DNA from: an uncultured Neomegalonema sp.
GTDB taxonomy: Bacteria > Pseudomonadota > Alphaproteobacteria > Rhodobacterales > Rhodobacteraceae
NCBI GenBank assembly: GCA_937958625.1
Contig: CALGNO010000052.1
Span: 1-46,816, forward strand
Direction of reading: 5' to 3'
Length of the DNA: 46,816 bases
Shown here: positions 20,700 through 46,164 of the stretch, piece after piece
Numbering within the stretch: position 1 is the first letter of the stretch
How the letters are laid out: each line of letters begins with the position of its first letter
Program-made: the position numbers and the translations under genes
Notes under the pieces: generated by a model
The model's input: the letters and a program-made list of their open reading frames with translations, nothing else
Told to the model about the DNA's origin: nothing
Database searches by the model: none

Positions 20700-20728
20700 T
20701 TGCACTTTCCGTGGTCTTTGGTATACCA
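20700..20728 (+). promoter_or_regulatory. Predicted promoter with palindromic GntR-type operator
   Basis: TTGCAC (20700-20705) and TATACC (20722-20727) are spaced by 16 bases. TGGTATACCA (20719-20728) is a perfect 10-bp palindrome over the -10. This is close to operators of FadR-subfamily GntR regulators, such as the UxuR/ExuR type. It lies 48 bases upstream of a gene for just such a regulator, so autoregulation and control of the following operon are likely. Confidence 0.6.
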
Positions 20729-20776
20729 GACTCACAGGGCCGCACTTAGACGGCTTACGGGGAGGACGTGCCGGGG

Positions 20777-21490
20777 ATGGCAAGCGCGCTGAAATTGCAG
20801 CCCGTGGATGCGAGCTTTTCGCTCGGCGACCATATTTATGGCGTGCTGCGCGACGCGATCCTTGCCATGGACATCTACAATCCAGCCACCGACCTGCGCC
20901 TAGACGAGCGCGCCCTTGCCGAACAACTCAATATCTCCCGCACCCCCATACGCGAGGCGCTCGTGCGTCTCGAACAGGATGGCTTCGTCGAGGTGCAGGC
21001 GCGCAAGGGCGTCTTTGTCCTGCGCAAATCCGTCCATGAAATCGGCGAGATGATCACCGTCTGGGCGGCCCTCGAAAGCATGGCCGCACGGTTGGCGGCG
21101 GAGCGGGCAACGGCGGAGGATGTCGCCTCCCTGCGCGAGATGGGCCAGCGATTCAGCAGCCGTAAGGCCAGCGCCCATATTCAGGAATATTCCGAGGCGA
21201 ATATCGAGTTTCACCAGCGCATTCTGGAACTCTCAAACTGCTCCAAGCTGAAATCAATTGCCGATGGCCTGCTTTTGCACATGCGCGCCGTGCGCAACCA
21301 TGCGATGCCTGAGGGGAATCGAACCGAGGCTTCGGTTGTCGACCACATGACCATTATCGAGGCAATCGAAGCGAAAGACGCCGATCTCGCCGCACGCCTC
21401 GTTCGCGAACACACCATGCGCTTGCACGATCATGTCATCGAGACATGGTCGGAGCGGGCCGAAGAGACAAAACAAAACGAAGCGGTTTGA
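20777..21490 (+). CDS. GntR-family transcriptional regulator, FadR/FCD subfamily
   Basis: A 237-residue regulator. The winged helix lies at about residues 15-80 (LDERALAEQLNISRTPIREA, then VRLEQDGFVEVQARKG). The all-helical FCD effector domain follows from about 85 to 225, with histidine positions in the NIEFHQRI and VDHMTIIEAI segments that usually bind a metal and a carboxylate ligand. The ATG at 20777 is preferred over the GTG at 20768, which is too close to GAGG. It heads the catabolic operon, starting 19 bases before the ThDP enzyme gene, and probably senses the operon's acid substrate. Confidence 0.85.
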   Translation: MASALKLQPVDASFSLGDHIYGVLRDAILAMDIYNPATDLRLDERALAEQLNISRTPIREALVRLEQDGFVEVQARKGVFVLRKSVHEIGEMITVWAALESMAARLAAERATAEDVASLREMGQRFSSRKASAHIQEYSEANIEFHQRILELSNCSKLKSIADGLLLHMRAVRNHAMPEGNRTEASVVDHMTIIEAIEAKDADLAARLVREHTMRLHDHVIETWSERAEETKQNEAV

Positions 21491-21509
21491 GCCGCACGGG
21501 AGGAAGACC

Positions 21510-23249
21510 ATGGCCGACTCAATCTCTGCAACTGCCCATGACACGCTTGCGCAAAAGAGCAAGGATGACAGCATCGTCTCCGGGGGGCGTCTGGTCGCAA
21601 AGGCCCTGAAGGCCGAGGGCGTCGATACCGTCTTTACCCTCTGCGGCGGTCATATCATCGACATTTACGACGGCTGTATCGACGAAGGCATCAAGATCGT
21701 CGATGTGCGCCATGAACAGACGGCGGCCCATGCCGCCGACGGCTATGCTCGCCAAACCGGCAAGCTTGGCTGCGTGGTCACCACCGCCGGTCCCGGTTGT
21801 ACCAATGCGGTCACGGGCGTGGCGACGGCCTTCCGCTCCGAAAGCCCGATCCTGCATATCGGCGGCCAGTCCAGCCTGACCCAGCACAAGCAAGGTTCTC
21901 TTCAGGATTTGCCGCATGTTGATATGATGGCACCGATCACGAAATTCGCATCGGGCGTGTTCTCGACCAACCGCGTGGCCGACATGGTCTCGATGGCGGC
22001 CCGCGAGTGCTTCAATGGGGCCTACGGCCCCAGCTATCTCGAAATTCCCCGCGATATTCTCGATGCCGAAATTCCAATCGAGCAGGCGGTCATCCCCGAG
22101 GCAGGCAGCTATCGTGCCTCGACCAAATCCATCGGCGATCCCCGCGACATCGAACGGCTCGCCGATATTCTGGTCAACGCCAAGCGCCCGGCGGTCCTTT
22201 TTGGTCAGCAGGTCATGTCTTCGGGCAGCATCGAAGCCTGTGCCCAGTTCGCCCGCGCCCTCGATATTCCGGTTTACGCCAATGGCGGCGCGCGCGGCAT
22301 GATGCGGCGCGACGACCCGCACCACTTCGACCGCACCCGCTCGGATGCGTTCAAGAAGGCCGATGTGATCCTGATCGTCGGCACGCCGTTCGATTTCCGC
22401 ATGGGCTACGGCAAGCGCATCTCGAAGGATGCCACACTGGTTCAGATCGACCAGAGCTATGCGACTGTGGGTAAGAACCGCGATATTTCGCTCGGCCTCG
22501 CCGGCGATCCCGGCTCGATCTGTGCGGCGGTCGAGCAAGCCGCAACCGGGCGCATCGACAACACCGCCCGTCAGGCGCGTCAGGAATGGATGAAGGAGTT
22601 GCGGGCGATCGAGGCGGCGAAATACGACAAGCTGCTGCCGATGTTCAAAAACGACTCCAGCCCGATCCACCCCTATCGTCTTGCCTACGAGATCAACGAG
22701 TTTCTGGCAGAGGACACGATCTATATCGGCGATGGCGGCGACATCGTTACGATTTCCGCCCAGGCCGTCCGCCCGCGTAATCCGGGCCAGTGGATGGACC
22801 CAGGCGCGCTCGGCTCACTTGGCGTCGGCACGGGTTTCGCGATGGCCGCAAAAATGGCGCATCCAAACAAGGAAGTGCTGTGCCTCTATGGTGATGGCTC
22901 TTTCGGTATGACGGCTTTCGACATGGAAACCTCCCAGCGTTTCGGCGCGCCTTATCTGGCGGTGATCGGCAACAACTCTGCGATGAACCAGATTCGCTAT
23001 GGCCAGATTGCCAAATACGGCGCGAACCGCGGCGACATCGGCAACAAGCTCGGCGATGTCGAATTCGGCAAGTTCGGTGAAATGATCGGCGGCTATGGCG
23101 AAGAAGTCCGCGAGGCTGGCCAGATCGGCCCAGCCATGCAACGCGCCCGCGAAGCCATCGCCGCAACCGGCAAATGCGCCGTGGTCAATGTCTGGATTGA
23201 TCCTAACGAATACGCACCGGGCACCAAAGCCCAGACGATGTATAAATAA
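21510..23249 (+). CDS. ThDP-dependent acyl-CoA decarboxylase/lyase, divergent oxalyl-CoA decarboxylase type
   Basis: A 579-residue enzyme of the acetolactate synthase/oxalyl-CoA decarboxylase/2-hydroxyacyl-CoA lyase family. The catalytic glutamate is Glu69 in [15 protein letters not shown]. The ThDP-Mg motif is GDGSFG at 461 with NN at 488-489. In a typical oxalyl-CoA decarboxylase the segment after GSSER contains a Tyr-Glu pair facing the oxalyl group; here the equivalent reads [12 protein letters not shown]. It ends in a tail [16 protein letters not shown] that could cover the active site. Next to an Frc-like CoA-transferase it should produce formyl-CoA, from oxalyl-CoA or a 2-hydroxyacyl-CoA. 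The start at 21510 has GGGAGGAAG upstream. Confidence 0.75.
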
Positions 23250-23275
23250 TCGAACACCGAGCGGAGTTTGCCCAG

Positions 23276-24553
23276 ATGAAAGCCCTTTCCGGCGTCAAAA
23301 TCCTCGACTTTACCCATGTCCAGTCCGGGCCGACCTGTACGCAGTTGCTCGCGTGGTTCGGGGCGGATGTGATCAAGGTCGAACGTCCCGGCGTCGGTGA
23401 TGCGACCCGTAAGCAACTGGTCGATGTGCCGGGTGCCGACAGCCTCTATTTCACGATGCTGAACCACAATAAGCGTTCTATCGAGATCAACTCGAAGGAT
23501 GAAACCGGCAAGGAAGTCCTGACCCGCCTTGTGCGCGAATGTGATGTGCTGGTCGAAAACTTCGCCCCCGGCGCGCTCGACCGCATGGGCTTCGGCTGGG
23601 AAGACCTGCAAAAGATCAACCCGCGCATCATCATGGCATCGGTAAAGGGCTTTGGTCCCGGCCAGTATGAAGACTGCAAGGTCTATGAGAACGTCGCCCA
23701 ATGTGCGGGCGGTTCGGCCTCGACCACCGGGTTTCTTGACGGCCCGCCCGTCGTAACCGGTGCCCAGATCGGCGATAGCGGTACGGGGCTACACCTGGCG
23801 CTTGGTATCGTCACCGCGCTGTTCCAGCGTGAAAAGACCGGGCGGGGACAAAAAGTGCTCGCCGCGATGCAGGATGGCGTCCTCAATCTGTGCCGGGTGA
23901 AACTGCGCGATCAGCAGCGATTGGCTGCCGGTCCGCTCAACGAATATTCGCAGTTCGGCGCGGGTATTCCCTTTGGCGAGGCGACACCGCGTGCGGGAAA
24001 TGATTCCGGCGGCGGACAGCCGGGCCGGATTCTGAAATGTAAGGGGTGGGAGACGGACCCCAACGCCTATACTTACTTCATCACCCAGGCGGCGGTCTGG
24101 AAGAACGTCTGCGACGTCATCGGCGAGCCGGACTGGAAAGAGGCCGAGGGCTATGCGACGCCCCCAGAACGCCTTGACAAGCTCGACGCCATTTTCGACC
24201 GGATCGAGCAATGGACGATGACCAAAGACAAGTTCGAGGTCATGGACATCTGCAACCCTCTCAATATCCCCGTTGGTCCGATCCTCAGCATGAAGGAAAT
24301 CGCCGAGGACGAGGGCCTGCGCGCCACCGGCACCGTGGTCGAAGTCGACCACCCCGAACGCGGCCCGTATCTGACAGTCGGTTGTCCAATCAAACTCAGC
24401 GACAGCGAAGTCGTCGTCGAGCGGTCTCCCTTGCTGGGCGAGCACACGGCGGAAATCCTGTCCGAAGTGCTGGGCTATGCGGGCGACGAGTTCGAACGGG
24501 TGGTTCAGTCGGGCGCTGTCGGTGATGTGAAACTGCCAAAGGCGGCGGAATAA
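23276..24553 (+). CDS. frc: Formyl-CoA:oxalate CoA-transferase (Frc-like)
   Basis: A 425-residue class III CoA-transferase. The catalytic aspartate is Asp167 in AQIGDSGTG, equivalent to Asp169 of the Oxalobacter enzyme. The flexible glycine loop is SGGGQPG near residue 245. Long stretches such as [28 protein letters not shown] and LKCKGWETD follow Frc closely. It moves CoA from formyl-CoA to oxalate, or to a related acid, releasing formate. It lies 26 bases after the ThDP enzyme and overlaps the next gene by one base (TAATG), so the three are one unit. Confidence 0.86.
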
Positions 24554-25467
24554 TGCGTATTATCGTCATGGGTCAGCAGGCATTCGGCAAGGATGCGCTG
24601 GCGAAAATTCTCGACGCGGGCACTGATGAAGTGGTCGCCGTCTATTGCGAGCCGGATCGCGAGGGCAAGCCTGTCGATCCGATCAAGACCTATGCTCAAG
24701 AGGTCGGCCTGCCGGTTCATCAGCCTGCGAATTTCAAATCGCAAGAGTCCATTGATACCCTGAAGTCGCATGATGCCGACCTTATGGTCATGGCCTTCGT
24801 CAATGTCTTCGTGCCCGAGGCGGCGCGGGACACGCCGAAGCACGGTTCGATCTGCTTTCACCCGTCCCTGCTTCCCCTGCACCGGGGACCGTCGGCGGTG
24901 AACTGGCCGATTATCTGGGGGTCGGAGAAATCCGGGTTTTCGTGGTTCTATCCGACCGATGGTCTGGACGAGGGCGATATCCTCATGCAGTGGGAGTGCC
25001 CGATCGAGCCGGATGACACGGTGATCGACCTCTACTTCAAGAAAATCTACCCGGCGGCCATCGACTCGGTTCCGGCGGTCGTGGATGCGTTTCGCGATGG
25101 CAACCCACCGCGCACGCCCCAGGACGAGAGCAAGGCGACCTACGAATATCGCTGCAAAAAATCCCATGCTGAGATCGATTGGTCGAAGCCAGTGGCCGAG
25201 GTCTACAACCTGATCCGCGGGTGCAACCCGGCGCCGGGCGCCTGGACAACCCATGGCGGTTCAGAGCTGCAAATCTTCGATGCGGCGCGCGTGGATGGCG
25301 ATGGAAATGTCGGCTCTGTCGTTTCTGTCGATCAGGACGGCGTCGCCGTACAGGCGCAGGGCGGTCGAATTCTTATCAAACGGGTACGACCGGGAGGCGG
25401 CGAGAAACAAGCTGCCGCTGACTGGGCTAATTCCATTGGACTTACACCCGGCGATAGGCTTGGGTGA
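24553..25467 (+). CDS. Formyltransferase-fold enzyme, 10-formyl-THF hydrolase-like
   Basis: A 304-residue protein with the methionyl-tRNA formyltransferase fold. The catalytic segment is HPSLLPLHRGPSAVNW with the downstream aspartate in DGLDEGDILMQ. A C-terminal domain follows from about residue 205. Sequence such as GFSWFYPTDGLDEGD and the WTTHGG region resembles the hydrolase domain of 10-formyltetrahydrofolate dehydrogenase more than Fmt, which is expected elsewhere in the genome. It would split 10-formyl-THF to formate and THF, or move the formyl group to another acceptor. It sits directly before fhs, which makes or uses the same folate. Confidence 0.75.
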   Translation: MRIIVMGQQAFGKDALAKILDAGTDEVVAVYCEPDREGKPVDPIKTYAQEVGLPVHQPANFKSQESIDTLKSHDADLMVMAFVNVFVPEAARDTPKHGSICFHPSLLPLHRGPSAVNWPIIWGSEKSGFSWFYPTDGLDEGDILMQWECPIEPDDTVIDLYFKKIYPAAIDSVPAVVDAFRDGNPPRTPQDESKATYEYRCKKSHAEIDWSKPVAEVYNLIRGCNPAPGAWTTHGGSELQIFDAARVDGDGNVGSVVSVDQDGVAVQAQGGRILIKRVRPGGGEKQAAADWANSIGLTPGDRLG

Positions 25468-25490
25468 AACAATATTGCTGAGGGACATGC

Positions 25491-27158
25491 ATGTCTGATA
25501 TTGAAATTGCGCGGCAGGCTAACAAGAAACCGATTCAGGAAATCGGTGCGAAGATCGGTATCGGGTCGGATGACCTGCTGCCCTATGGCCACGACAAGGC
25601 GAAGATTTCCGCGGATTTCATCAAGTCAAAGGCGGGCGATGCCGATGGCAACCTGATCCTCGTGACGGCGATCAACCCGACCCCTGCGGGCGAGGGCAAG
25701 ACCACCACCACGGTTGGTCTCGGTGATGGCCTGAACAAGATCGGCAAGAACGCCATGGTCTGTATCCGCGAGGCGTCTCTCGGGCCGAATTTCGGCATGA
25801 AGGGCGGCGCGGCGGGCGGCGGCTATGCGCAGATTGTGCCCATGGAGGATATGAACCTCCACTTCACCGGCGATTTCCACGCGATTACCTCGGCCCACAG
25901 CCTGTGTGCGGCCCTGCTCGACAACCATATCTACTGGGGCAACGAGCAAGAGATCGACGTGCGCCGGGTCGTGTGGCGGCGGGTGGTCGACATGAACGAC
26001 CGCGCCCTGCGCCAGATCACGGCCTCCCTTGGCGGCGTGGCAAACGGCTTTCCGCGTGAGACCGGTTTCGACATTACCGTCGCCTCCGAAGTCATGGCGA
26101 TCCTTTGCCTCGCGAATGATCTGGCCGATCTGCAAAAGCGCCTCGGCGATATGATCGTCGCCTATCGCCGTGACCGCTCGCCGGTCTATTGCCGGGACAT
26201 CAAGGCCGATGGCGCAATGACCGTGCTGTTGCAGCAGGCGATGTCGCCGAACCTCGTGCAGACGTTGGAGAACAACCCCGCCTTTGTCCATGGCGGCCCG
26301 TTCGCCAATATCGCCCATGGCTGTAACTCGGTCGTGGCGACGAAGACGGCGCTGAAGCTGTGTGACTACGTGGTGACCGAGGCCGGGTTCGGGGCTGATC
26401 TCGGCGCAGAGAAATTCCTCAACATCAAGTGCCGCAAGGCCGGCCTGTCGCCGAAGGCGGTGGTGCTGGTGGCAACCATTCGGGCGATGAAGATGAATGG
26501 CGGCGTTGCCAAGGCCGACCTCGGGGCCGAGAATGTCGCGGCGGTGGAAAGCGGCTGCGCCAACCTTGGCCGTCACATCGAAAACCTCGGCAAGTTCGGC
26601 GTGCCTGTCGTGGTCGCGATCAACCACTTCAACGGCGATACTGATGCCGAAGTGCAGGCGGTGAAGGATTTCGTCGCGGGGCAAGGCACCGAAGCCGTGC
26701 TCTGCAAGCACTGGGCAAATGGCGGCGACGGCACCATCGATCTGGCCAACAAGGTCGTCGAGATCATCGACAGCGGCAAGGCCGCCTACAAGCCGCTTTA
26801 CGAGGACGGCATGAGCCTCGCGGACAAGATCGAGACCATCGCGACGCAGATTTACCGCGCGGATGGAGTCGACATCGACAAGAAACTGCGCGATCAGCTC
26901 AAGGCCTGGGAAGACCAAGGCTATGGCAACCTGCCGGTCTGTATGGCGAAGACGCAATACAGCTTCTCGACCGATCCGACCCAGCGCGGCGCACCGACGG
27001 GATTCCGCATCCCGGTCCGCGAGGTCCGTATCTCTGCCGGAGCGGGCTTCATCGTCGCGATCTGCGGTGAGATCATGACCATGCCCGGCCTGCCCCGCGT
27101 CCCCGCCGCCGAATCAATCCGGCTGGACGACAACGGCCAGATCGAAGGGCTGTTCTGA
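25491..27158 (+). CDS. fhs: Formate-tetrahydrofolate ligase
   Basis: A 555-residue enzyme of the usual length for Fhs. It joins formate, ATP and THF to 10-formyl-THF, and can run in reverse to make ATP. The P-loop is TPAGEGKTT near residue 66. Further conserved stretches are [16 protein letters not shown] and [14 protein letters not shown]. Within this operon it would capture formate released by the CoA-transferase and by formyl-CoA breakdown, feeding C1 units to biosynthesis. The start at 25491 follows GAGGG. Confidence 0.93.
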
Positions 27159-27218
27159 GTTGAACGCACGTGCCCTCATATCGCGTGCCTGCGCTCTCCT
27201 GAGCAGGGGGGCGCTCGC

Positions 27219-28064
27219 ATGACCATCGGCAAGATCGTCATTCCGATCCGGGGCGACGGCGCGGGCGAGAACGTGCTTGCCCATGCGGCGGCCCTGGCCC
27301 GTCGCTTCGATGCCCATGTCGAGGCGGTTCACTGTCGCCCCCGGGCGAAAGACTTGCTGCCCTACGGCGTTCCGGTCCCGGCCTTTCTGAAAAAGCAGAT
27401 CGCTGAGTCGGCGACAGACCTCGCCGATGAAGAAGAAAAGACCCTGCGCGCCGAATTCGACGCGCTATTGCCGCAATTCGGACTGACGCTTGGCAAGGGT
27501 GGAAGCACCGCTTCTTGGCGTGAGGCAGCGGGAAAGCAGATCGACGTGATCCGAATCCATGGTCGCTTGGCGGATGTGGTGGTTGTCGCGAAACCGGATC
27601 GCGACCGGAACCTGGGTGCGAACACGCTGCGCGCGGCGCTGTTCAATACAGGCAGGCCGGTCATGATGTGTCCGATGCGCGAGGATCATCCGCAAACCCT
27701 TTGCGATCACGTCAGTATCGCGTGGAACGGCTCGGTCGAGGCCTCTCGCGCCGTCGCGCTGACCACGCATATTATCAGCGCCGCCAGCAAGGTCACAGTT
27801 TTGACCGCTGGCGAGGATAAATCGGGTGCGTCTGCGGAAGACTTGCTCGATTATCTCGAAACCCGGGGTGTCAGCGCCGAGCTCGATCGCTTTATCCCCG
27901 AGCGCAGTATTGGGCGCAGCTTGCTGGAACGATCTGCCGCTGCGGGGGCCGATACGCTGATCATGGGCGCATATGGCGACAGCCACGAAAAGGAGACTGT
28001 GTTCGGTGGTAATACTCAAACCGTGGTGGACACGGCACAAATGCCGGTAATCATGGTTCACTGA
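27219..28064 (+). CDS. Tandem-domain universal stress protein
   Basis: A 281-residue UspA-family protein with two domains, about residues 1-140 and 150-281. The second ends with the ATP-binding pattern MGAYGDSHEKETVFGG; the first is degenerate at that site. Such proteins bind ATP or act as sensors in the cytoplasm. It lies between fhs and the transporter genes on the same strand, 60 bases after fhs, so it probably belongs to the operon. The start has a G-run 10 bases upstream. Confidence 0.82.
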   Translation: MTIGKIVIPIRGDGAGENVLAHAAALARRFDAHVEAVHCRPRAKDLLPYGVPVPAFLKKQIAESATDLADEEEKTLRAEFDALLPQFGLTLGKGGSTASWREAAGKQIDVIRIHGRLADVVVVAKPDRDRNLGANTLRAALFNTGRPVMMCPMREDHPQTLCDHVSIAWNGSVEASRAVALTTHIISAASKVTVLTAGEDKSGASAEDLLDYLETRGVSAELDRFIPERSIGRSLLERSAAAGADTLIMGAYGDSHEKETVFGGNTQTVVDTAQMPVIMVH

Positions 28065-28178
28065 GCGGGGACGGGCAGCGAAGATAGCGGGGCAGCGCAA
28101 AGTCGCCTCGCCAAGGGCCGCACAAGACGGCAATAAAAACAAACCGTTCGAAAAGACGTTTAAATGGGAGAATACCAG

Positions 28179-29153
28179 ATGAAACTGATGAAAACCTTGG
28201 CCTTGACCGGTGCCGCGCTCGGCATGACCGTGGCGGCAACCGCCGCCCAGGCCTTCGAGCCCTCCAAACCCATCGACTTCGTCATCATGGCGGGTAAAGG
28301 CGGCGGTGCCGACAAGATGGCGCGGCTGATGCAGTCAATCGTCGAAAAGAACGAACTGGCCTCCGTGCCGATGGTGCCGACCAATAAATCGGGTGGATCG
28401 GGTGCCGAGGCGCTGTCCTACATGAGCAAGGTCAATGACCCGGATCACTCGATCATGGTGACGCTGAACTCGTTCTATACGACGCCGCTGCGTCAGCCGG
28501 GCCTGAAGGTCGATAACATGGCCTTTGCTCCCATCGGTCGCATGGCCGAAGATACCTTTGTGCTTTGGGTCCATAAGGACGAGGGGATCAGCACCTTTGA
28601 CGAATTCCTCGCCGAAGTGAAAAGCCGCGGAAACAAGTGGGTCATGGGCGGCACCGGCAAGAACTCCGAGGACAACATCATCACCGACCACCTCAACGAA
28701 GCCTATGGTCTCGACATCAAGTACATCCCCTACAAGGGCGGTGGCGCGGTGGCCAAGGACCTCGCGGGCAAGCAGATCCAGTCGTCGGTGAACAATCCCT
28801 CAGAAGCGCTCGGCTTCTACGAATCCGGTGACGTGGTGCCGATCGTTGCGTTCACTAACGAACGCCTGCCGATGTTTCCGGATACGCCGACCCTGAATGA
28901 GGCTAGCGATGAGGCCGATTTCTCGTACTTCATGCAGCGGTCTGTTGTCGGTGCGCCTGGTATGTCCCACGAAGCGGCGGCTTATTACACCGAACTTTTC
29001 CGCAACGTCTACAAAAGCGATGAGTGGCAGAAGTACAAGAACGACAAGTCCCTGATGGGTGACTTCGTGTCACAGCTTGATCTCGCCGATTACTGGGCCG
29101 GTCAGATCGCTAATCACGAAACGATCCTCAAGGCCTCCGGCGCGATCAAGTAG
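28179..29153 (+). CDS. tctC: Tripartite tricarboxylate-type transporter, periplasmic binding protein
   Basis: A 324-residue TctC-family solute-binding protein with signal peptide (MKLMKTLALTGAALGMTVAA, cleavage near AQA-FEP). The typical opening KPIDFVIMAGKGGGADKMAR and the signature region IKYIPYKGGGAVAKDLAGKQ bind a carboxylate through backbone contacts. It captures the substrate for the TctAB membrane part downstream. The ATG at 28179 is chosen because GGGAGAA precedes it; the ATG at 28164 would place that site inside the gene. A strong hairpin follows the stop. Confidence 0.88.
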   Translation: MKLMKTLALTGAALGMTVAATAAQAFEPSKPIDFVIMAGKGGGADKMARLMQSIVEKNELASVPMVPTNKSGGSGAEALSYMSKVNDPDHSIMVTLNSFYTTPLRQPGLKVDNMAFAPIGRMAEDTFVLWVHKDEGISTFDEFLAEVKSRGNKWVMGGTGKNSEDNIITDHLNEAYGLDIKYIPYKGGGAVAKDLAGKQIQSSVNNPSEALGFYESGDVVPIVAFTNERLPMFPDTPTLNEASDEADFSYFMQRSVVGAPGMSHEAAAYYTELFRNVYKSDEWQKYKNDKSLMGDFVSQLDLADYWAGQIANHETILKASGAIK

Positions 29154-29245
29154 TCCCGGCGGCGCTCCCGCGCCGTCCACGACGCTCCCGGATTGCGCAT
29201 GGCGCCGTCCGGGGCTGGCACGATTAGCCGTTTCCCGATGAACCC

Positions 29246-29279
29246 GCATCGGGGCTTTCCCAGAAGTTTGCCCCGATGC
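29246..29279. terminator. Perfect 10-bp hairpin between tctC and tctB
   Basis: GCATCGGGGC (29246-29255) and GCCCCGATGC (29270-29279) are exact complements with a 14-base loop. It lies in the 157-base gap after the binding-protein gene. It could protect tctC mRNA or reduce read-through, so that binding protein is made in excess over the membrane subunits. Confidence 0.65.
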
Positions 29280-29310
29280 ACCGACAACCTCCGCCAACGA
29301 GAGGCCAGCC

Positions 29311-29934
29311 ATGCGCCGCGCCGAATTCGTCACCGCCATCATTCTCGGCCTCCTGTCCGCCTATCTCATGTGGAAGAGCGGCGAAGGACCGGAATGGGAT
29401 ACGGAATATGTTCACTGGTCCAATATCGGCGTGAATATCGATGGATCAGGACCGGGCAAGGGCTTCTGGCCGTTTTATCTGGCGCTGGGAATGTTGGTCT
29501 CCTGTATCTGGATTATCGTCAACACAATCCGCCGCACCTCGCCGCCTTCGCAGTCCGATGAACCGTTTATGGATGCCTATGCGAAAAAGATGCTGCTATT
29601 CGTCGGCGGCGGACTGATCGGCTTTTTGCTGTTGGTCGAATGGTTCAGCATGTATTTCGGCATCGCGATTTTCATGTTTTATTACATGATGTTCCTTGGC
29701 CGACATCCGCTCTTTCTCTCGATTGTAACAAGCCTTGTCGTTCCCTTCTGGCTGTATCTGTTCTTCGACATCGTCATGACGAAGATCCAGCCGAAGGGGA
29801 TGCGATGGCTCGAAGATGCGTTCTACAATCCGACGGGTGAGTTCTTCCGCTCGCAGTCCTTGATAACGATTGCCCTGTGTTTCGTGATCAGCGGAGCCTT
29901 GCTCGCCCTGTCGGCGCGCGCGGCTCGGGAATAG
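29311..29934 (+). CDS. tctB: Tripartite tricarboxylate-type transporter, small membrane subunit
   Basis: A 207-residue TctB-family protein with about four to five hydrophobic segments (near residues 7-20, 53-75, 87-135, 142-160 and 180-200). It is longer than many TctB proteins, with a loop carrying DTEYVHWSNIGVNIDGSG after the first helix. It assembles with TctA in the inner membrane. The start has GAGAGG upstream, and tctA begins nine bases after the stop. Confidence 0.8.
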   Translation: MRRAEFVTAIILGLLSAYLMWKSGEGPEWDTEYVHWSNIGVNIDGSGPGKGFWPFYLALGMLVSCIWIIVNTIRRTSPPSQSDEPFMDAYAKKMLLFVGGGLIGFLLLVEWFSMYFGIAIFMFYYMMFLGRHPLFLSIVTSLVVPFWLYLFFDIVMTKIQPKGMRWLEDAFYNPTGEFFRSQSLITIALCFVISGALLALSARAARE

Positions 29935-29943
29935 GGGGCGGCC

Positions 29944-31572
29944 ATGGAAATTCTTGCGGCACTTACCGACGGTATTCTCATCGCCATGCAGCCTCACAAT
30001 CTGGGGCTGGCGGTTATCGGGGTCATTGTCGGCCTGTTCGTCGGGGCCTTGCCGGGGCTGGGGTCGGTCAACGGGGTGGCGATCCTGCTGCCCTTTACCT
30101 TCGTGATCAACGAGGCAACGTCGGACCCCGCCTCGCCCATGATCTTTCTTGCCGCGATCTACTACGGCGCGATGTATGGCGGCGCGATTTCGTCGATCAC
30201 GCTCGGGATACCCGGGGCGTCGACGGCGGTGGCGACCACCTTCGATGGCCGGCCAATGGCCTTGCAGGGCAATGCCGACCGGGCGCTGGTCACCGCGGCC
30301 ATCGCGTCGTTCATCGGCGGGACCGTTGCCACGGTCTTTTTCAGCGGTTTTGCACCGTTCCTGTCTTCGGTTGCCCTCGATTTCGGCAATCCTGAGATTT
30401 TTGCCCTCATGCTGCTGGCCTTCGCCACGTTCATCGGGCTGGGCGGCGATGACATTCCAAAGACGATGTTCTCGATCTTTTTCGGCCTACTGCTCGCGAC
30501 GGTCGGCTTCGATACGATCTCGGGCGAGCCGCGCCTGATCTTTTTCAATGACCGCGAACAGACGGCGGTGCTCGAGGCTGTCGGCATGACCGGTGCCGCC
30601 GAGAACGTCCCCTACTTTGACTCGATCGGCTGGTTCAGCCGGGGCATCCAGTTTCTGGTGCTGGCCATCGGCGTCTATGGCATCGGCGAGATGATTTGGA
30701 CGATCAATGCCAGCCGCTACAAGCTGACGATGACCGAAACCAAAATCAGCTTTTCGCGCATCATGAAGGCCATCGTCGGCATGAAGGATGCATGGAAGGG
30801 CACGACGATTGGCTCGTTCCTCGGATTCTTCGTCGGTATCCTGCCCGCGGCGGGGGCGACCCCCGGCTCGCTGATGTCCTATGGCGTTGCCAAGATGACG
30901 TCCCGCAATCCGAAAAGCTACGGTCAGGGCAATCCCGATGGTGTCGCCGCGCCCGAGGCGGCGAACAACTCCGCCTCCACCGGTGCGATGCTGCCGATGA
31001 TGACGCTGGGAATTCCCGGCTCGCCCACCACCGCCGTGCTGCTGGCGGGGATGGTGATCTGGGGTCTGGAACCCGGCCCGCGCATGTTTGAGGACCGGCC
31101 AGAGTTTGTCTGGCCGCTGATCGGATCTTTTTACATCTCAAACATCGTCGCCGTCTTGGTGAACCTCGCGTTCATTCCGCTGTTCCTTTGGGTGCTGCGG
31201 ATGCCGTTCACGATCCTTGCACCCGTGATCTTCGTGCTGTCGGTGATCGGCACCTATGCCGCCTATGACAATATGTATGACGTTTGGCTGATGGTGTTTT
31301 TCGGGATCGGCGCGTACCTGCTGCGTATCCTCGATTACCCTCTGGCTCCCGCTGTATTGGCAGTGGTTCTGGGCACGACGGCAGAGCAAAAGCTGCGGCA
31401 ATCATTGTTGCTGTCGGATGGGGACTTCGCGATTTTCTACAGCCCGTTCTTTGACCGTGACGGCAAGGGGCAGGAATGGTGGATCGCGCCGATTACGACA
31501 TGGGTCGCGGTGATCCTGATCCTGCTGCCGATTATCCTGTGGGCCATGAAGAAGATACGCGCCAAAGCATGA
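29944..31572 (+). CDS. tctA: Tripartite tricarboxylate-type transporter, large membrane subunit
   Basis: A 542-residue TctA-family permease with about twelve helices. Family signatures are VGALPGLGSVNGVAILLPFT, YGAMYGGAISSITLGIPG and, in the second half, GILPAAGATPGSLMSYGVAK and MMTLGIPGSPTTAVL. It carries the carboxylate across the inner membrane, driven by an ion gradient. It is the last transport gene; the reductase gene follows after 54 bases. Confidence 0.9.
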   Translation: MEILAALTDGILIAMQPHNLGLAVIGVIVGLFVGALPGLGSVNGVAILLPFTFVINEATSDPASPMIFLAAIYYGAMYGGAISSITLGIPGASTAVATTFDGRPMALQGNADRALVTAAIASFIGGTVATVFFSGFAPFLSSVALDFGNPEIFALMLLAFATFIGLGGDDIPKTMFSIFFGLLLATVGFDTISGEPRLIFFNDREQTAVLEAVGMTGAAENVPYFDSIGWFSRGIQFLVLAIGVYGIGEMIWTINASRYKLTMTETKISFSRIMKAIVGMKDAWKGTTIGSFLGFFVGILPAAGATPGSLMSYGVAKMTSRNPKSYGQGNPDGVAAPEAANNSASTGAMLPMMTLGIPGSPTTAVLLAGMVIWGLEPGPRMFEDRPEFVWPLIGSFYISNIVAVLVNLAFIPLFLWVLRMPFTILAPVIFVLSVIGTYAAYDNMYDVWLMVFFGIGAYLLRILDYPLAPAVLAVVLGTTAEQKLRQSLLLSDGDFAIFYSPFFDRDGKGQEWWIAPITTWVAVILILLPIILWAMKKIRAKA

Positions 31573-31626
31573 CACGCGGACGTCGCCGCCTATGTGTACG
31601 GCATGTAAAATGAGAACGGACGGGTC

Positions 31627-32619
31627 ATGAAAATCTGTGTCTACGGTGCCGGTGCAATCGGCGGCTATCTCGCCCATGGACTGGCGCAGGCGGAGGAGGT
31701 CGAGCTGTCGATTATCGCTCGTGGTCCCCACCTGAAAGCGATTAATGAGAACGGTCTGACCTTGCTGAAAGATGGCGAGAGCAGCACCGTGAAAGTGCGC
31801 GGCACGTCTGACGCAAGTGAACTCGGGCCGCAGGACGCCATTTTCAACTGTCTGAAGGCGCATCAGGCATGGGCCTCTGCCGACGATCTCAAGCCTTTGC
31901 TCGGACCAGAAACCACAGTCGTGACGTGCCAGAACGGGGTGCCGTGGTGGTATTTCCACAAAATCGGCGGCGAGTTCGAGGGCAAGACTCTGGATTCCGT
32001 TGATCGCGGCGACCGCCAATGGAACGCCATCGGGCCAGAGCGGGCCATCGGGTGCAGCGTCTATCCCGCCACGGAAATCACCGAACCGGGCGTGATCAAG
32101 CACACCTATGGCGACAAATTTGCCCTGGGCGAGCCGTCGGGCGAATCCACGCCGCGCATTGAGAAACTGTCGGCACTGATGGAGGAGGGCGGCCTGCGCG
32201 CCCCGGTCCTCGACGACATCCGCTCGGAATTATGGCTGAAGCTGTGGGGAAATCTCTGCTTTAATCCGATTTCCGCCCTAACCCGCGCGACTCTCGATAT
32301 CGTCGCCACCGACCCCGGCACGCGCGCGACGTGCAAGGCGATGATGCTGGAGGCACAGGCGGTTGCCGAGAAGCTCGGCTCGTCCTTCCGCGTCGACGTG
32401 GAGCGCCGGATCAACGGCGCGGCCAAGGTCGGCGCGCATCGCACCTCGATGCTGCAAGACCTTGAGGCCGACAAGGCCATGGAAATCGACGCGCTTGTGA
32501 CGGCGGTGTCGGAAATGGGCAAGATCACCGGCCTGCCGACCCCGATGCTCGACGGTGTATTGTCGCTGGTCCAGCAACTCGGGCGCAGCAAGGGCCTTTA
32601 CCCGACATACCCGGAATGA
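31627..32619 (+). CDS. Ketopantoate reductase-family oxidoreductase, candidate oxalyl-CoA reductase
   Basis: A 330-residue NADP-dependent enzyme of the PanE family. The Rossmann motif GAGAIGGYLAHGLA lies at about residues 6-19, with CQNGVPWWYF near residue 102. The C-terminal catalytic domain has KLWGNLCFNPISALTRATL with the conserved lysine and asparagine, near residues 205-223. Housekeeping PanE makes pantoate, but here the gene sits in a carboxylate operon. In Methylobacterium extorquens a PanE-like protein (PanE2) reduces oxalyl-CoA to glyoxylate; that role would fit the Frc-like neighbour. The assignment is by analogy. Confidence 0.7.
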   Translation: MKICVYGAGAIGGYLAHGLAQAEEVELSIIARGPHLKAINENGLTLLKDGESSTVKVRGTSDASELGPQDAIFNCLKAHQAWASADDLKPLLGPETTVVTCQNGVPWWYFHKIGGEFEGKTLDSVDRGDRQWNAIGPERAIGCSVYPATEITEPGVIKHTYGDKFALGEPSGESTPRIEKLSALMEEGGLRAPVLDDIRSELWLKLWGNLCFNPISALTRATLDIVATDPGTRATCKAMMLEAQAVAEKLGSSFRVDVERRINGAAKVGAHRTSMLQDLEADKAMEIDALVTAVSEMGKITGLPTPMLDGVLSLVQQLGRSKGLYPTYPE

Positions 32620-32623
32620 TCCG

Positions 32624-34333
32624 ATGAACGCCGCCTCCATCGCGATGGCGATTGATGCGGCGTGCTCGACCTATGCGCGGCGGTTCCATGCCATTCCTGA
32701 CTTGATGCGCCGCGCTTTTGAGGCGCGAGACTGGCCCGAGTCTCTGGCCCTCAGCCGCGAGCGCATGACGGTTTATTCCGACCATGTCCGCGATGTCGCG
32801 GCAAAGATCGCCGTTGGGGCGAGCGGGTCGATTCACAGCGAGGCCTTCTGGCAAGAGGTCCGCGATCACTATGTCGAGCTGATCCGGGGTCGCTATGCCG
32901 CTGACATCGCTTATGCCTTCATGAACTCCGTCCGCCGCCGGGTTTCTCGCGGCGCATGGCGGGCGGTGGATTATTCCTGGGGCCGGGTTTCTGGCGAGAG
33001 CCGTCCGGCCTTAGAGAATCGCATCCGAATTCATCGCAGCGTGTTCTTCGACGATGGCGTGACGGCGGAAAACCTGCGCACGATCCTGCTGATACCGGGG
33101 ATCGAGGCACCGTTTCGTGATCTCGCAGCGGATGCGGAAAAGGCAGCAGCGCGGATCAACGAGCGGGTGACCGCCGGTCTGTCCGGCGCGTTTGAGATTA
33201 TCGATGCCGGATTTTACCGCAATCGCGGGGCCTATATCGTCGGACGTATCCGGCTGGCCGACAGGGTAGTGCCGTTTGGCATTGCGCTGCTGAACGAAGA
33301 AGACGGGGTGTTCGTCGATGCGGTGCTGATCTCGCACGACACGCTTCGCTATGTGTTCAGTTCATCGCTGGCGAATTTCCACGTCACCCTGCCGCATTAT
33401 CACGAGCTGGTGGATTTTCTTCACGGCATCATGCCGGGCAGGCCCCACGCGCTGCATTATTCGACGGTCGGCTTTCACCACACCGGCAAGATCGCAGTTA
33501 TGCGCGAGTTGTCCGACGAGTTGCGCCGCTCCGAAGAGGTGTTCGACCATGCCGTCGGCAAGCGTGGCACGGTCGCCATCGGCTTTTCGGCTCCGTCGTC
33601 GCGCATGGTGCTGAAGGTTATCCGCGACACGCCGACCGAAAACTACAAATGGGACCATTTTCCTGGCATCGACGCGGTGCTTGGCAAGTACCGCCAACTG
33701 CACGAGATCAACCGTGCGGGCAGTATGCTCGACAACGTCATCTATACAAATGTCAGCCTGCCCGCCGCGCTGTTCGGCGAGGATCTTCTCGACACGCTGC
33801 TGACTTATGCCAGCGAGAATGTCGCGCGCGATGGGGATGCGATCATCCTCAAGCACTTGATTGTGCAAATGAAAATGACGCCGCTGCCGGTTTTTCTGCA
33901 AACCGCAACGCGCGAAGAGGCCGAGGCGGCGATTGCAAGCTTGGGCCGCTGTATCAAGAACAACGCCGCCGCGAATATCTTCAACAAGGATCTGGATGGT
34001 CGTAACTATGGCGTCGGCCAGACGCTGAAGGTCTATCTGTTCGATTACGATGCCGTCGAAAAACTCACCGACGTTAAAGTGCGCTCAAATCTCGAGCGTA
34101 TCGACGGCGACGAGGATATCCCCGACTGGTTTTTCGAGGAGGGGACGATCTTTCTTCCTGAAGAGATCGAGTTGCATATGCGCATCGAAGACCCGAGCCT
34201 GCGCCGGGTCTTTCGCAGCGAGCATGGCGAAATCCTGAAGACTGATTTCTGGACCGATATGCAAAAGCGGCTCGAGGCGGGAGAGGTGCCGCGCGTCAGC
34301 ACCTATCCCGATCATTGCTCGCTGCTCCGATAA
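32624..34333 (+). CDS. aceK: Isocitrate dehydrogenase kinase/phosphatase
   Basis: A 569-residue AceK, which phosphorylates and dephosphorylates isocitrate dehydrogenase to divert isocitrate into the glyoxylate bypass. Conserved stretches include GFSAPSSRMVLKVIRDTPTE (nucleotide-binding region), YKWDHFPGIDAVLGKYRQLH and KNNAAANIFNKDLDGRNYGV. The length fits the family. The start at 32624 lies four bases after the reductase stop, so it probably belongs to the same transcript rather than to an aceBA operon. It ends 15 bases before the convergent pyk. Confidence 0.93.
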   Translation: MNAASIAMAIDAACSTYARRFHAIPDLMRRAFEARDWPESLALSRERMTVYSDHVRDVAAKIAVGASGSIHSEAFWQEVRDHYVELIRGRYAADIAYAFMNSVRRRVSRGAWRAVDYSWGRVSGESRPALENRIRIHRSVFFDDGVTAENLRTILLIPGIEAPFRDLAADAEKAAARINERVTAGLSGAFEIIDAGFYRNRGAYIVGRIRLADRVVPFGIALLNEEDGVFVDAVLISHDTLRYVFSSSLANFHVTLPHYHELVDFLHGIMPGRPHALHYSTVGFHHTGKIAVMRELSDELRRSEEVFDHAVGKRGTVAIGFSAPSSRMVLKVIRDTPTENYKWDHFPGIDAVLGKYRQLHEINRAGSMLDNVIYTNVSLPAALFGEDLLDTLLTYASENVARDGDAIILKHLIVQMKMTPLPVFLQTATREEAEAAIASLGRCIKNNAAANIFNKDLDGRNYGVGQTLKVYLFDYDAVEKLTDVKVRSNLERIDGDEDIPDWFFEEGTIFLPEEIELHMRIEDPSLRRVFRSEHGEILKTDFWTDMQKRLEAGEVPRVSTYPDHCSLLR

Positions 34334-38518: not shown

Positions 38519-39163
38519 ATGAAGACGTTGACTGGCCTCGCGGCCTTTGCTGCCCTTATTGCAACGCCAGCCCTGGCGCACCACCCCTTGGCGGGTGCCG
38601 AGATGACCACGTTCACGCACGGTGTTCTGTCCGGTATCGGGCACCCGGTTCTCGGGTTCGATCACCTGTTCTTTGTGATCGCGGTCGGTATCGTTGCCGC
38701 GCTGAGCGGTCGCCTGCTGGTCGCACCGCTTGCGTACATTGCCGGGATGCTTGGAGGCATTGCGCTCATCACGAATGGTGTCGGCCTTCCCTATGTTGAA
38801 TTTGTCATTGCCGGATCGTTGATCCTGCTCGGCGGTTTGGCCGCATCGGGCCGCGCGATGGCGGCCCCTCTGGCGATGGCGCTGTTCGCTGGTGCCGGAC
38901 TTTTCCACGGCTGGGCCTTCGGTGAGACTGTCACGGGACAGGAAGCCGGCATGGGCGCGGCGGTGCTTGGCGGCTATCTGCTCGGCCTAGTTGCCGTGCA
39001 ATACGTGGTTTCCGTTGCCGCGGGCTGGTTGGCGCGTTGGGGCATTTCTGGTGCCGCAGACATTAAACCTCGCCTTGCCGGAGCTGTGGTTGCAGGCGTT
39101 GGCCTGACATTTTTCCTAGAGGCTTCGGAAACGGCGATCTTCGCATCCCTCGGCCTTGGCTGA
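38519..39163 (+). CDS. hupE: HupE/UreJ-family metal transporter, probable cobalt uptake
   Basis: A 214-residue membrane protein with signal peptide (ATPALAHHP) and about six helices. The family metal motif is HPVLGFDHLFFV near residues 41-52, and GLFHGWAFGE near residues 128-137 supplies another His. HupE/UreJ proteins carry nickel or cobalt. When placed behind a B12 riboswitch, as here, they are predicted to import cobalt for cobalamin synthesis. The ATG at 38519 follows AAGGAGA. bluB begins four bases after its stop. Confidence 0.87.
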   Translation: MKTLTGLAAFAALIATPALAHHPLAGAEMTTFTHGVLSGIGHPVLGFDHLFFVIAVGIVAALSGRLLVAPLAYIAGMLGGIALITNGVGLPYVEFVIAGSLILLGGLAASGRAMAAPLAMALFAGAGLFHGWAFGETVTGQEAGMGAAVLGGYLLGLVAVQYVVSVAAGWLARWGISGAADIKPRLAGAVVAGVGLTFFLEASETAIFASLGLG

Positions 39164-39166
39164 GTT

Positions 39167-39835
39167 ATGATCCCGGAGGCAGCCGCCTCCGCATCGCAAT
39201 CGGGCCGGTCGTTCTCTCCTGCGTTTCAGCAAGGGTTGAGCGACTTGTTCGCATGGCGGCGCGACGTCAGGCGGTTTTCAACCGATCCGGTGCCGGAGGA
39301 ACTCGTGGTCAGCGTTCTCGCGGCGGCGGGGTCGGCACCCTCGGTGGGCCTGTCCGAGCCATGGCGGCTCGTCAGGGTTGAAAGCCGCACCTGCCGTGCC
39401 GCCGTCATTGCGAATTTCGAGGCTGCAAACGCCGACGCGCTCGCGGATCAGGACGAAGACCGCAACGAGGCCTATGCCGCGCTTAAACTCGCGGGACTGC
39501 AAGAGGCTCCGGTTCATCTAGCGGTCTTCTGCGATGAGCAAACCACGCAGGGCGGCGGCCTCGGTGCTGCGACGATGCCAGAGATGCGTCGATATTCGGT
39601 TGTGTGCGCAGTGATGCAAATGTGGTTGAGCGCACGCGCCCTCGGGCTGGGTATGGGCTGGGTCTCGATCCTCGATCCGGCGCGGGTTGTGGACGATCTG
39701 GACGTTTCGGCTGATTGGTCTCTGATTGCTTACTTGTGTATCGGGTGGCCACTCGAAGAACATCTCGACTGCGAACTGGAGCGGGCTGGCTGGGAACAGC
39801 GCCGCCGCGTTCAGGATCGCGTTCTTATCAGGTAA
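39167..39835 (+). CDS. bluB: 5,6-dimethylbenzimidazole synthase BluB
   Basis: A 222-residue nitroreductase-fold enzyme. It cuts reduced FMN with oxygen to make 5,6-dimethylbenzimidazole, the lower ligand of B12. The FMN segment RRDVRRFSTDPVPEE lies near residue 31, then GSAPSVGLSEPWR. YSVVCAVMQMWLSARALGLG and GMGWVSI build the rest of the site. Riboswitch control and the cob neighbours support BluB over a general nitroreductase. The gene is packed between hupE and cobW. Confidence 0.9.
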   Translation: MIPEAAASASQSGRSFSPAFQQGLSDLFAWRRDVRRFSTDPVPEELVVSVLAAAGSAPSVGLSEPWRLVRVESRTCRAAVIANFEAANADALADQDEDRNEAYAALKLAGLQEAPVHLAVFCDEQTTQGGGLGAATMPEMRRYSVVCAVMQMWLSARALGLGMGWVSILDPARVVDDLDVSADWSLIAYLCIGWPLEEHLDCELERAGWEQRRRVQDRVLIR

Positions 39836-39839
39836 GACG

Positions 39840-40883: not shown

Positions 40884-41296
40884 TCCGACTTGCGATTATC
40901 GCGCTCATGATTGCAACGCCCGCTCTCGCTGAAACCGAGACGAAATCCGAGGCCGGAACCGCGTTTATGGAACGCTGCGTCACCGACATCACCGACAACC
41001 GGATTGCAAAGCTTAAACGTCAGGTGCCCGACTATGCGGCCTCGCTGAGTGATGAGGAACTGACGGCGGGGGGCATGGCGAAGGCGGTTTCGGTCTGTCC
41101 ATGCTTTCTGCATATGATCGGCATCGACACTCAGACCGAAGACCCCACCCCCGAGGACAAGGTGGCGACCGTCGTTGCCTATCTCGACTCGATTGGCACC
41201 CACGATTCATTGCCGATGCCCTCCATCGTCCCGCGCATGACGCGCCTCTGCGGCGAGCGCGGCTCGGTCCTGCCGCGCTCCTGGATTATGCAATAG
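40880..41296 (+). CDS. Unknown exported cysteine-containing protein in the cob operon
   Basis: A 138-residue protein with a signal peptide (LAIIALMIATPALAET, cleavage near residue 17). The mature part has four cysteines: Cys33, a CPC pair at 73 and 75, and Cys124. This layout could bind a metal or form disulfides. No domain is recognised. It overlaps cobW by four bases and its stop codon abuts the cobN ATG with no gap, so it is made in step with the cobalt-insertion machinery. A periplasmic role in cobalt handling is inference from position only. Confidence 0.7.
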   Translation: MIRLAIIALMIATPALAETETKSEAGTAFMERCVTDITDNRIAKLKRQVPDYAASLSDEELTAGGMAKAVSVCPCFLHMIGIDTQTEDPTPEDKVATVVAYLDSIGTHDSLPMPSIVPRMTRLCGERGSVLPRSWIMQ

Positions 41297-45007: not shown

Positions 45008-45192
45008 TCAATGCTGGGTTCGTATGAGTATCCCTGTCGCTGTTCTCGGTTGGAACATGTCGCGTCCACGCGGGTTTCAATACCAGCGCGGGCCTGACGT
45101 CGGACGTGATCGGTGATACTATTGCGCCTCAATGGGTGAGGAAAGGCCGGATGGCGGTGCATAAGTCCGCGAAGGCCGGGGAGTTTTGACAG

Positions 45193-46134: not shown

Positions 46135-46164
46135 CACGCGCCCCGCAACGGAGAGGCCCCGACG

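What the first reader, a model, noticed from the sequence alone, without database searches (positions are those of the whole stretch)
20700..34333. Candidate formyl-CoA-linked catabolic operon for oxalate or a related acid, with its own transporter and regulator
Seen: a GntR regulator, a ThDP acyl-CoA decarboxylase-type enzyme, a very Frc-like CoA-transferase, a 10-formyl-THF hydrolase-like enzyme, fhs, a Usp, tctC-tctB-tctA, a PanE-family reductase and aceK all lie on one strand with short gaps or overlaps. Known: Frc and oxalyl-CoA decarboxylase break oxalate to formyl-CoA and CO2, and a PanE-like enzyme (PanE2) in Methylobacterium extorquens reduces oxalyl-CoA to glyoxylate. Inference: the acid enters through TctABC, Frc loads CoA, one branch goes to formyl-CoA and formate (then Fhs), the other to glyoxylate. 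Putting uptake, both branches and glyoxylate-bypass control in one unit is not an arrangement I know.
Basis: partly seen in the sequence, partly recalled or inferred. Interest (0 to 1): 0.82.

Follow-up and report, generated by a model that had tools for sequence, protein, structure and literature searches.

The report
Oxalate operon with substitute decarboxylase
This gene cluster most likely lets a bacterium take up and break down oxalate, but its key decarboxylase comes from a protein lineage separate from the known oxalate enzyme, so such oxalate users can be missed by present annotation.

Summary
In detail: eleven same-strand genes, GntR to AceK, gaps of -1 to 157 bases. The oxalate reading is well supported, with one change that makes it more interesting. 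P0003 is a formyl-CoA:oxalate CoA-transferase (Frc) by curated cut-off and active-site residues. The adjacent ThDP enzyme P0002 is not a known oxalyl-CoA decarboxylase (Oxc): 225 bits against a cut-off of 557, Oxc active-site residues replaced, one clade with Oxc rejected (AU p 0.0007). Yet in relatives, a congener included, the same operon carries true Oxc in that slot; the neighbour type changed at least four times on the Frc tree. In one genus the two types nearly exclude each other (14 and 42 of 60 genomes, both in 1). Two strains reported to grow on calcium oxalate hold the P0002 type and no Oxc over the cut-off. I read P0002 as a second lineage of oxalyl-CoA decarboxylase. P0004 with Fhs probably links formyl-CoA and 10-formyl-THF. 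TctABC as oxalate carrier and PanE as oxalyl-CoA reductase fit but are untested. Glyoxylate-bypass control is not supported: no isocitrate lyase was found. The gene order recurs widely.

The parts
20768..21490 (+). GntR/FCD-family regulator (P0001)
   Evidence: Pfam GntR and FCD over cut-off; similar gene in the stretch in 57 of 80 named relatives
21510..23249 (+). ThDP-dependent enzyme (P0002), proposed second-lineage oxalyl-CoA decarboxylase (ORF listed from 21432)
   Evidence: under the Oxc cut-off, separate clade, Frc 700 bases or less downstream on the same strand in 76 of 80 relatives
23276..24553 (+). Formyl-CoA:oxalate CoA-transferase, Frc (P0003)
   Evidence: TIGR03253 689 bits, cut-off 504; YfdW nearest solved; active-site residues kept
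24553..25467 (+). FDH-hydrolase-type formyltransferase (P0004), proposed 10-formyl-THF:CoA formyltransferase
   Evidence: nearest solved structure by sequence and fold is the FDH hydrolase domain; triad invariant in 47 of 47
25491..27158 (+). Formate-tetrahydrofolate ligase, Fhs (P0005)
   Evidence: NF010030 932 bits, cut-off 652
27219..28064 (+). Universal stress protein (P0006)
   Evidence: Pfam Usp; in 9 of 80 named relatives
28164..29153 (+). TctC-type periplasmic receptor (P0007)
   Evidence: Pfam TctC 70.8 bits, cut-off 27
29311..29934 (+). TctB small membrane subunit (P0011)
   Evidence: Pfam TctB 49.6 bits, cut-off 29.1
29944..31572 (+). TctA large membrane subunit (P0008)
   Evidence: Pfam TctA 444 bits, cut-off 28.9
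31627..32619 (+). PanE/ApbA-family reductase (P0009), candidate oxalyl-CoA reductase
   Evidence: NF005089 475 bits, cut-off 223; similar gene in the stretch, either strand, in 25 of 80
32624..34333 (+). AceK, isocitrate dehydrogenase kinase/phosphatase (P0010; ORF listed from 32555)
   Evidence: both Pfam AceK domains; NF002804 477.8 bits, just under cut-off 488

Best explanation
An oxalate-use operon. Inferred: oxalate enters through TctCBA; Frc (P0003) moves CoA from formyl-CoA to oxalate, giving oxalyl-CoA and formate; the ThDP enzyme P0002 decarboxylates oxalyl-CoA to formyl-CoA and CO2, closing the cycle. P0002 belongs to a ThDP lineage separate from classical Oxc that has taken over the same step. 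Fhs charges formate onto THF; P0004 links 10-formyl-THF and formyl-CoA, either priming the cycle (as suggested for YfdE in E. coli) or feeding C1 units onward; PanE reduces part of the oxalyl-CoA to glyoxylate. Shown here: gene content, family membership of Frc and Fhs, repeated exchange of Oxc and the P0002 type beside the same Frc, conserved Frc active site. Inferred: every substrate and every direction of flow.
For: Frc is over the curated cut-off; of ten active-site positions checked, nine are identical in 58 of 58 P0002-linked rows and the loop Pro in 56 of 58. P0002-type genes have Frc downstream on the same strand in 76 of 80 named loci, one of them a short piece. In the window's family, of 100 genomes searched 12 hold a close Frc: 3 have the P0002 type beside it, 8 have Oxc, 1 has neither; the congener's Frc is 92% identical yet stands beside Oxc. 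The Frc tree (quick method) needs 5 changes of type, at least 4 forced by starred branches. Genus of Cupriavidus pauculus: P0002 type 14, Oxc 42, both 1 of 60, expected 9.8, Fisher p 2e-8. Strains LMG 21444 and LMG 22037 are reported to grow on Ca-oxalate (PMC3886118); genomes so titled show the P0002 type plus Frc, no Oxc over cut-off and no bicupin oxalate decarboxylase. P0004 and an NDP-forming acyl-CoA ligase gene seldom meet beside the P0002 type (1 both, 23 and 21 alone, 19 neither of 64; Fisher p 8e-5).
Against: I found no measured activity for a P0002-type enzyme. Oxc residues Y120 and E121 are Leu and Gln and there is no Tyr at Y483, so the chemistry must differ in detail. In 300 genomes of the order of C. 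pauculus the two types are not depleted together (5, 50, both 1, expected 0.8), and the genus-level exclusion is not corrected for shared ancestry. 6 of 36 P0002-type carriers searched also hold an Oxc. Burkholderiaceae loci carry extra genes (FAA hydrolase, CoA ligase), so the substrate there might be wider. The two oxalate growers are draft genomes. With ancestry taken in, the P0004/ligase exclusion is only suggestive (median p 0.06). P0004 is not seen near the operon in the two oxalate growers, so it is not always part of it.
Confidence: 0.78

Rival explanations
1. P0002 is a 2-hydroxyacyl-CoA lyase: Frc loads CoA onto a 2-hydroxy acid, the ThDP enzyme splits it to an aldehyde or ketone and formyl-CoA, as in 2-hydroxyisobutyrate breakdown.
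For: Nearest solved structures by sequence and by fold are 2-hydroxyacyl-CoA lyases and benzaldehyde lyase; lyase model NF058623 347 bits, more than Oxc 225; formyl-CoA would still be made.
Against: 347 is below the lyase cut-off of 600; the partner Frc keeps its active-site residues; the slot is exchangeable with Oxc beside near-identical Frc; oxalate-growing strains with only this type.
Confidence: 0.12
2. The operon serves glyoxylate or glycolate oxidation: PanE runs backwards (glyoxylate to oxalyl-CoA), P0002 decarboxylates it, and formate is burned or assimilated; outside oxalate is not the main substrate.
For: In C. [quoted passage not shown] PanE-type genes recur near the operon.
Against: The same passages report that frc-oxc deletion abolishes growth on oxalate; a TctABC carrier sits in the window's operon. 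Which decarboxylase type C. necator carries was not established here.
Confidence: 0.1
3. P0004 is a plain 10-formyl-THF hydrolase that frees THF and formate, not a formyl-CoA enzyme.
For: Its nearest solved kin are called hydrolase domains; a hydrolase would relieve THF trapped by Fhs.
Against: Next to Fhs it would make an ATP-burning cycle; the FDH domain passes formyl to a phosphopantetheine thiol and the HypX domain is proposed to pass it to CoA (PMC6802093 passages); it tends to occur where an acyl-CoA ligase gene is absent.
Confidence: 0.35

Closest known systems
frc-oxc oxalate pathway (Oxalobacter formigenes, E. coli yfdXWUVE, Methylorubrum extorquens, B. phytofirmans PsJN)
   Same: Frc is of the YfdW type; formyl-CoA cycle; in the window's family the same operon often holds true Oxc
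   Different: decarboxylase from another ThDP lineage; no YfdE or YfdV among the eleven genes; TTT carrier instead of an OxlT-type antiporter; P0004 and Fhs added
Oxalyl-CoA decarboxylase (TIGR03254, NF006721)
   Same: ThDP enzyme domains, catalytic Glu, partner Frc, C-terminal tail past the core
   Different: outside the clade, far under the cut-off, Y120/E121/Y483 replaced, invariant QTMYK end instead of the Oxc tail
2-hydroxyacyl-CoA lyase/synthase (8vza, 7pt1) and benzaldehyde lyase
   Same: nearest solved relatives by sequence and fold
   Different: about 28% identity in the fold search; below the lyase model's cut-off; paired with Frc
FDH (ALDH1L) hydrolase domain and HypX N-terminal domain
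   Same: P0004 has the fold and the His-Ser-Asp triad of FDH
   Different: stand-alone protein; Cys or Gln where the FDH sequences show Ile
PanE2 / ApbA2 oxalyl-CoA reductase
   Same: PanE family, near frc in many loci
   Different: not compared with the M. extorquens or C. necator sequence here; activity untested

Membership tests
Oxalyl-CoA decarboxylase (Oxc) | score over NF006721 or TIGR03254 cut-off | tested here: not met
   P0002 225 bits against 557; P. tuberum copy 237.7 against 557 and 220.9 against 739.4, congener's Oxc 984.7 and 976
Oxalyl-CoA decarboxylase (Oxc) | falls in one clade with known Oxc | tested here: not met
   two separate clades, 27 and 12 rows; one joint clade rejected, AU p 0.00065, with long branches noted by the tool
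Oxalyl-CoA decarboxylase (Oxc) | key residues Y120, E121, Y483, S553, R555 | tested here: not met
   Leu, Gln, no Tyr, other tail; residue list from PMC10192776 passages
Oxalyl-CoA decarboxylase (Oxc) | catalytic Glu that activates ThDP (E56) | tested here: met
   E95 invariant in 17 of 17, aligned with the Oxc HEQ motif
Oxalyl-CoA decarboxylase (Oxc) | decarboxylates oxalyl-CoA to formyl-CoA | not testable with these tools
   needs an enzyme assay
Formyl-CoA:oxalate CoA-transferase (Frc) | score over TIGR03253 cut-off | tested here: met
   689.3 against 504.2
Formyl-CoA:oxalate CoA-transferase (Frc) | catalytic Asp169, Gln17 and glycine-rich loop | tested here: met
   D167, Q16, GGGQP at 245-249 of P0003
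2-hydroxyacyl-CoA lyase | score over NF058623 cut-off | tested here: not met
   347.5 against 600
FDH-type formyltransferase | His-Ser-Asp triad and fold | tested here: met
   H103, S105, D139 in 47 of 47; 4qpd TM 0.88
10-formyl-THF:CoA formyltransferase (function) | CoA as formyl acceptor | not testable with these tools
   needs an assay
Tripartite tricarboxylate transporter | TctC, TctB and TctA over Pfam cut-offs in one operon | tested here: met
Tripartite tricarboxylate transporter for oxalate | oxalate as ligand of TctC | not testable with these tools
   needs a binding test
Oxalyl-CoA reductase PanE2 | reduces oxalyl-CoA to glyoxylate | not testable with these tools
   only family membership seen

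The most novel reading that the evidence does not exclude
Bacteria hold two separately derived oxalyl-CoA decarboxylases that swap beside the same Frc, the second of them spread over Proteobacteria and present in some Actinobacteria but named, where I saw a name, only 'thiamine pyrophosphate-binding protein'; and this operon has its own formyl-CoA maker, Fhs plus a stand-alone FDH-type formyltransferase (P0004) that moves formyl between THF and CoA, a slot filled elsewhere by an acyl-CoA ligase.
Probability: 0.42. Interest if true: 0.75.

Novelty: new variant of a known kind. Interest (0 to 1): 0.62.

Why it matters
Surveys of oxalotrophy count oxc by the classical family. If the P0002 type does the same step, oxalate users with only this type (here among records titled SAR116, Rhodobacteraceae, Acidiferrobacteraceae, Paraburkholderia, Cupriavidus, Streptomyces) would be missed in soil and ocean carbon budgets, and formyl-CoA enzymology would gain a second decarboxylase scaffold for synthetic C1 work. 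The P0004 proposal would give a direct enzymatic bridge between formyl-CoA and the folate C1 pool, testable in one assay.

Tried and rejected
Rejected: P0002 as a plain acetolactate synthase (best model PRK05858 438 bits, below its cut-off 587; partner Frc). Rejected: bicupin oxalate decarboxylase explaining the oxalate growers (none of 6 genomes; control rings in B. subtilis and S. elongatus). Rejected: a YfdE-type primer in these loci (102 of 111 loci match E. coli YfdE, in each case only inside the Frc gene; YfdV in 0 of 111); the window genome's other CoA-transferase is nearest a succinate-glutarate transferase but under the cut-off of each of the 7 models listed. Not helpful: promoter and terminator scans (no more than shuffles). 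The library search for oxalate with 'tripartite tricarboxylate transporter' and 'formyl-CoA' found no paper, nor did 'thiamine pyrophosphate-binding protein' with oxalate and 'formyl-CoA transferase'. Idea dropped: that the C. necator frc-oxc deletion tests the P0002 type; I could not tell which type that strain has, and two genomes of 7.4 Mb in the genus (its size as I recall it) hold Oxc and not the P0002 type. The 300-genome survey gave no sign of exclusion.

Row choices: the Frc tree used 67 of the 113 sources scanned, chosen by hand to thin near-copies and short pieces, plus E. coli and 5 Oxc-linked rows. The ThDP trees used 27 P0002-type rows chosen by hand; four long rows (three of the window genome's other ThDP enzymes and E. 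coli PoxB) were dropped for the careful tree. The P0004/ligase count used the 98 P0002-type loci over 55% identity, then the 64 with enough flank.
Full report
What is there. The stretch 20768-34333 holds eleven + strand genes in the order GntR, ThDP enzyme (P0002), Frc (P0003), formyltransferase-like P0004, Fhs, Usp, TctC, TctB, TctA, PanE, AceK, with gaps of -1 to 157 bases. Families were checked with NCBIfam and Pfam. Frc is over the TIGR03253 cut-off (689 against 504) and Fhs over its own (932 against 652).

The ThDP enzyme is not Oxc by descent. P0002 scores 225 bits on the Oxc model (cut-off 557), 347 on a 2-hydroxyacyl-CoA lyase model (cut-off 600) and 438 on an acetolactate synthase model (cut-off 587); none of the 25 best-scoring models that were listed (of 52) reaches its cut-off. 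In 8 plasmid records with a copy, 3 name the gene, as 'thiamine pyrophosphate-binding protein'. In trees the P0002 type (27 rows) and Oxc (12 rows) are each one fully supported clade, and holding them together is rejected (AU p 0.00065), with the caution that both sit on long branches. The places of Oxc Y120 and E121 are Leu and Gln in 17 of 17 rows, there is no Tyr at the place of Y483 in the six P0002-type rows printed, and the end QTMYK is invariant in 17 of 17. The ThDP-activating Glu is kept. A fold model (mean pLDDT 76.5) matches 2-hydroxyacyl-CoA lyases best.

Yet it sits where Oxc sits. In 100 genomes of the window's family, 12 hold a close Frc. Beside it, 3 have the P0002 type, 8 have Oxc and 1 has neither. 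The congener G620 has Frc 92%, Fhs 91% and TctC 80% identical to the window's, but an Oxc over the cut-off in the ThDP slot. On a Frc tree of 73 rows (quick method) the type of the neighbour changes 5 times at least, 4 of them forced by starred branches. TctC identity to the window does not follow the type in the family: 80, 72, 66 and 47% for Oxc-type loci L069, L070, L071 and L075, and 84, 73 and 70% for P0002-type loci L081, L076 and L077. Of ten Frc active-site positions checked (Q17, position 48, D169 and the loop glycines from PMC10192776, the others recalled), nine are the same in 58 of 58 P0002-linked rows, the loop Pro in 56; in the 14 Oxc-linked rows each is kept in 13 or 14.

Range. 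Frc is in the fetched stretch in 76 of 80 (a short piece in L103), on the same strand and 700 bases or less downstream in all 76; GntR in 57, P0004 in 32, TctA in 31, TctC in 26, PanE in 25, TctB in 24, Fhs in 21, Usp in 9, AceK in 5. Plasmid-collection records add Streptomyces and Nonomuraea at 60-63% identity.

Co-occurrence and phenotype. In the genus of Cupriavidus pauculus, 14 of 60 genomes have the P0002 type, 42 have Oxc, 1 has both and 5 neither; 9.8 would be expected to have both (Fisher p 2.1e-8). This is not corrected for shared ancestry. In 300 genomes of the same order the numbers are 5, 50 and 1, with no depletion. Of 36 carriers searched for Oxc (24 named, 12 unnamed), 6 also have one. 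Kost and co-workers list B. tuberum LMG21444 and B. phenoliruptrix LMG22037 as growing on calcium oxalate as sole carbon source (PMC3886118; abstract, passages and part 2 of section 3 read). Loci L118 and L134 are titled with those strain numbers. Their genomes have the P0002 type and Frc (both Frc over the cut-off), no Oxc over the cut-off (best 237 and 239 bits) and no bicupin oxalate decarboxylase. Other routes were not searched. This is the strongest single pointer to function, though both are draft genomes.

P0004. Its nearest solved relatives are FDH hydrolase domains by sequence (195 bits against 146 for the best methionyl-tRNA formyltransferase) and by Foldseek E-value (4qpd, TM 0.88; model pLDDT 92); some methionyl-tRNA formyltransferases reach a higher TM-score, 0.94. 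The FDH triad His-Ser-Asp, as given in PMC6802093 (passages), is invariant in 47 of 47 relatives as H103, S105, D139. That paper states that the FDH domain moves formyl from 10-formyl-THF to a phosphopantetheine thiol, and proposes the same for CoA in HypX without direct proof. In E. coli, YfdE is suggested to prime the oxalate cycle when formyl-CoA is lacking, and formyl-CoA had a half-life of 1.9 h in that paper's mixtures (PMC3720670, passages). No YfdE match outside Frc was seen in 111 loci. Beside the P0002 type, P0004 and an NDP-forming acyl-CoA ligase gene seldom meet: both 1, P0004 alone 23, ligase alone 21, neither 19 of 64 (p 7.9e-5; of all 98 loci 1, 39, 23, 35, p 9.3e-6; with ancestry, no pair goes the same way and about 5 of 10 the other way, median p 0.06). 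I therefore propose that Fhs plus P0004 do in two steps what a formyl-CoA or oxalyl-CoA ligase does in one. Confidence in this part is about 0.5.

PanE and AceK. PanE-family genes lie in the fetched stretch in 25 of 80 relatives. In C. necator, apbA2 near frc-oxc behaves as an oxalyl-CoA reductase and frc-oxc deletion abolishes growth on oxalate (PMC7486775, passages); which decarboxylase type that strain has was not established here, so I use this for PanE and the pathway only. AceK is in the stretch in 5 of 80 relatives, on the other strand in L082 and L110; in L084, L153 and L158 it is the next of the sought genes after P0004. Isocitrate lyase was not found in the window's genome, in its 99% complete congener, nor in the genomes of L110 and L158; it was found in those of L082, L084 and L153. 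Control of a glyoxylate bypass is therefore an unlikely role in the window's lineage; what AceK does there is open.

Formate outlet. A gene like the formate dehydrogenase of L072 (TIGR01591 727.9 bits, cut-off 666) lies in the fetched stretch in 16 of 111 loci, L072 itself counted, at 37% identity or more, in keeping with formate as product. None was seen among the window genes scanned.

What is already known. The residue survey of oxc in PMC10192776 (passages) reports Y120 and E121 fully conserved in its subset of 27, so that subset cannot have held the P0002 type. Searches of the open library for the enzyme under its public name with oxalate and formyl-CoA transferase, and for TTT carriers with oxalate and formyl-CoA, found no paper; most subscription journals are not held. 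I therefore call this a new variant of the known formyl-CoA oxalate pathway rather than a new kind.

Noticed in passing
window 32624-34333; L084, L153, L158: AceK lies beside the oxalate operon in distant lineages, yet the window genome, its congener and the genomes of L110 and L158 show no isocitrate lyase.
   Followed up: partly
L119 13141-15222 and 23 other loci: An NDP-forming acyl-CoA ligase gene (70% identity or more to the L119 copy) lies near P0002-type and Frc genes, mostly soon after Frc and, in all but one locus, where P0004 is not seen.
   Followed up: partly
L118 12986-13801, L119 15324-16100 and 20 other loci: A FAA-hydrolase-family gene stands near the P0002 type, mostly in Burkholderiaceae; role unknown.
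   Followed up: partly
L072 6046-11288: In G634 the Frc stands after GntR without a ThDP gene between, with a formate dehydrogenase alpha-subunit gene (TIGR01591 over cut-off) upstream; no Oxc over cut-off in that genome.
   Followed up: partly
L084, L085, L093, L151: P0002 type behind TctA but no Frc in the fetched stretch (L151 and L085 end soon after); L084 also has an ORF downstream that looks like an amidase, by eye only.
   Followed up: no
G687 contig 1, 2351723 and 2368132: Two P0002-type copies with the same score and identity about 16 kb apart in one genome.
   Followed up: no
window 38519-46779: HupE/UreJ, nitroreductase, CobW, CobN and CobO-family genes in a row, probably a cobalamin set downstream of the operon.
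   Followed up: no
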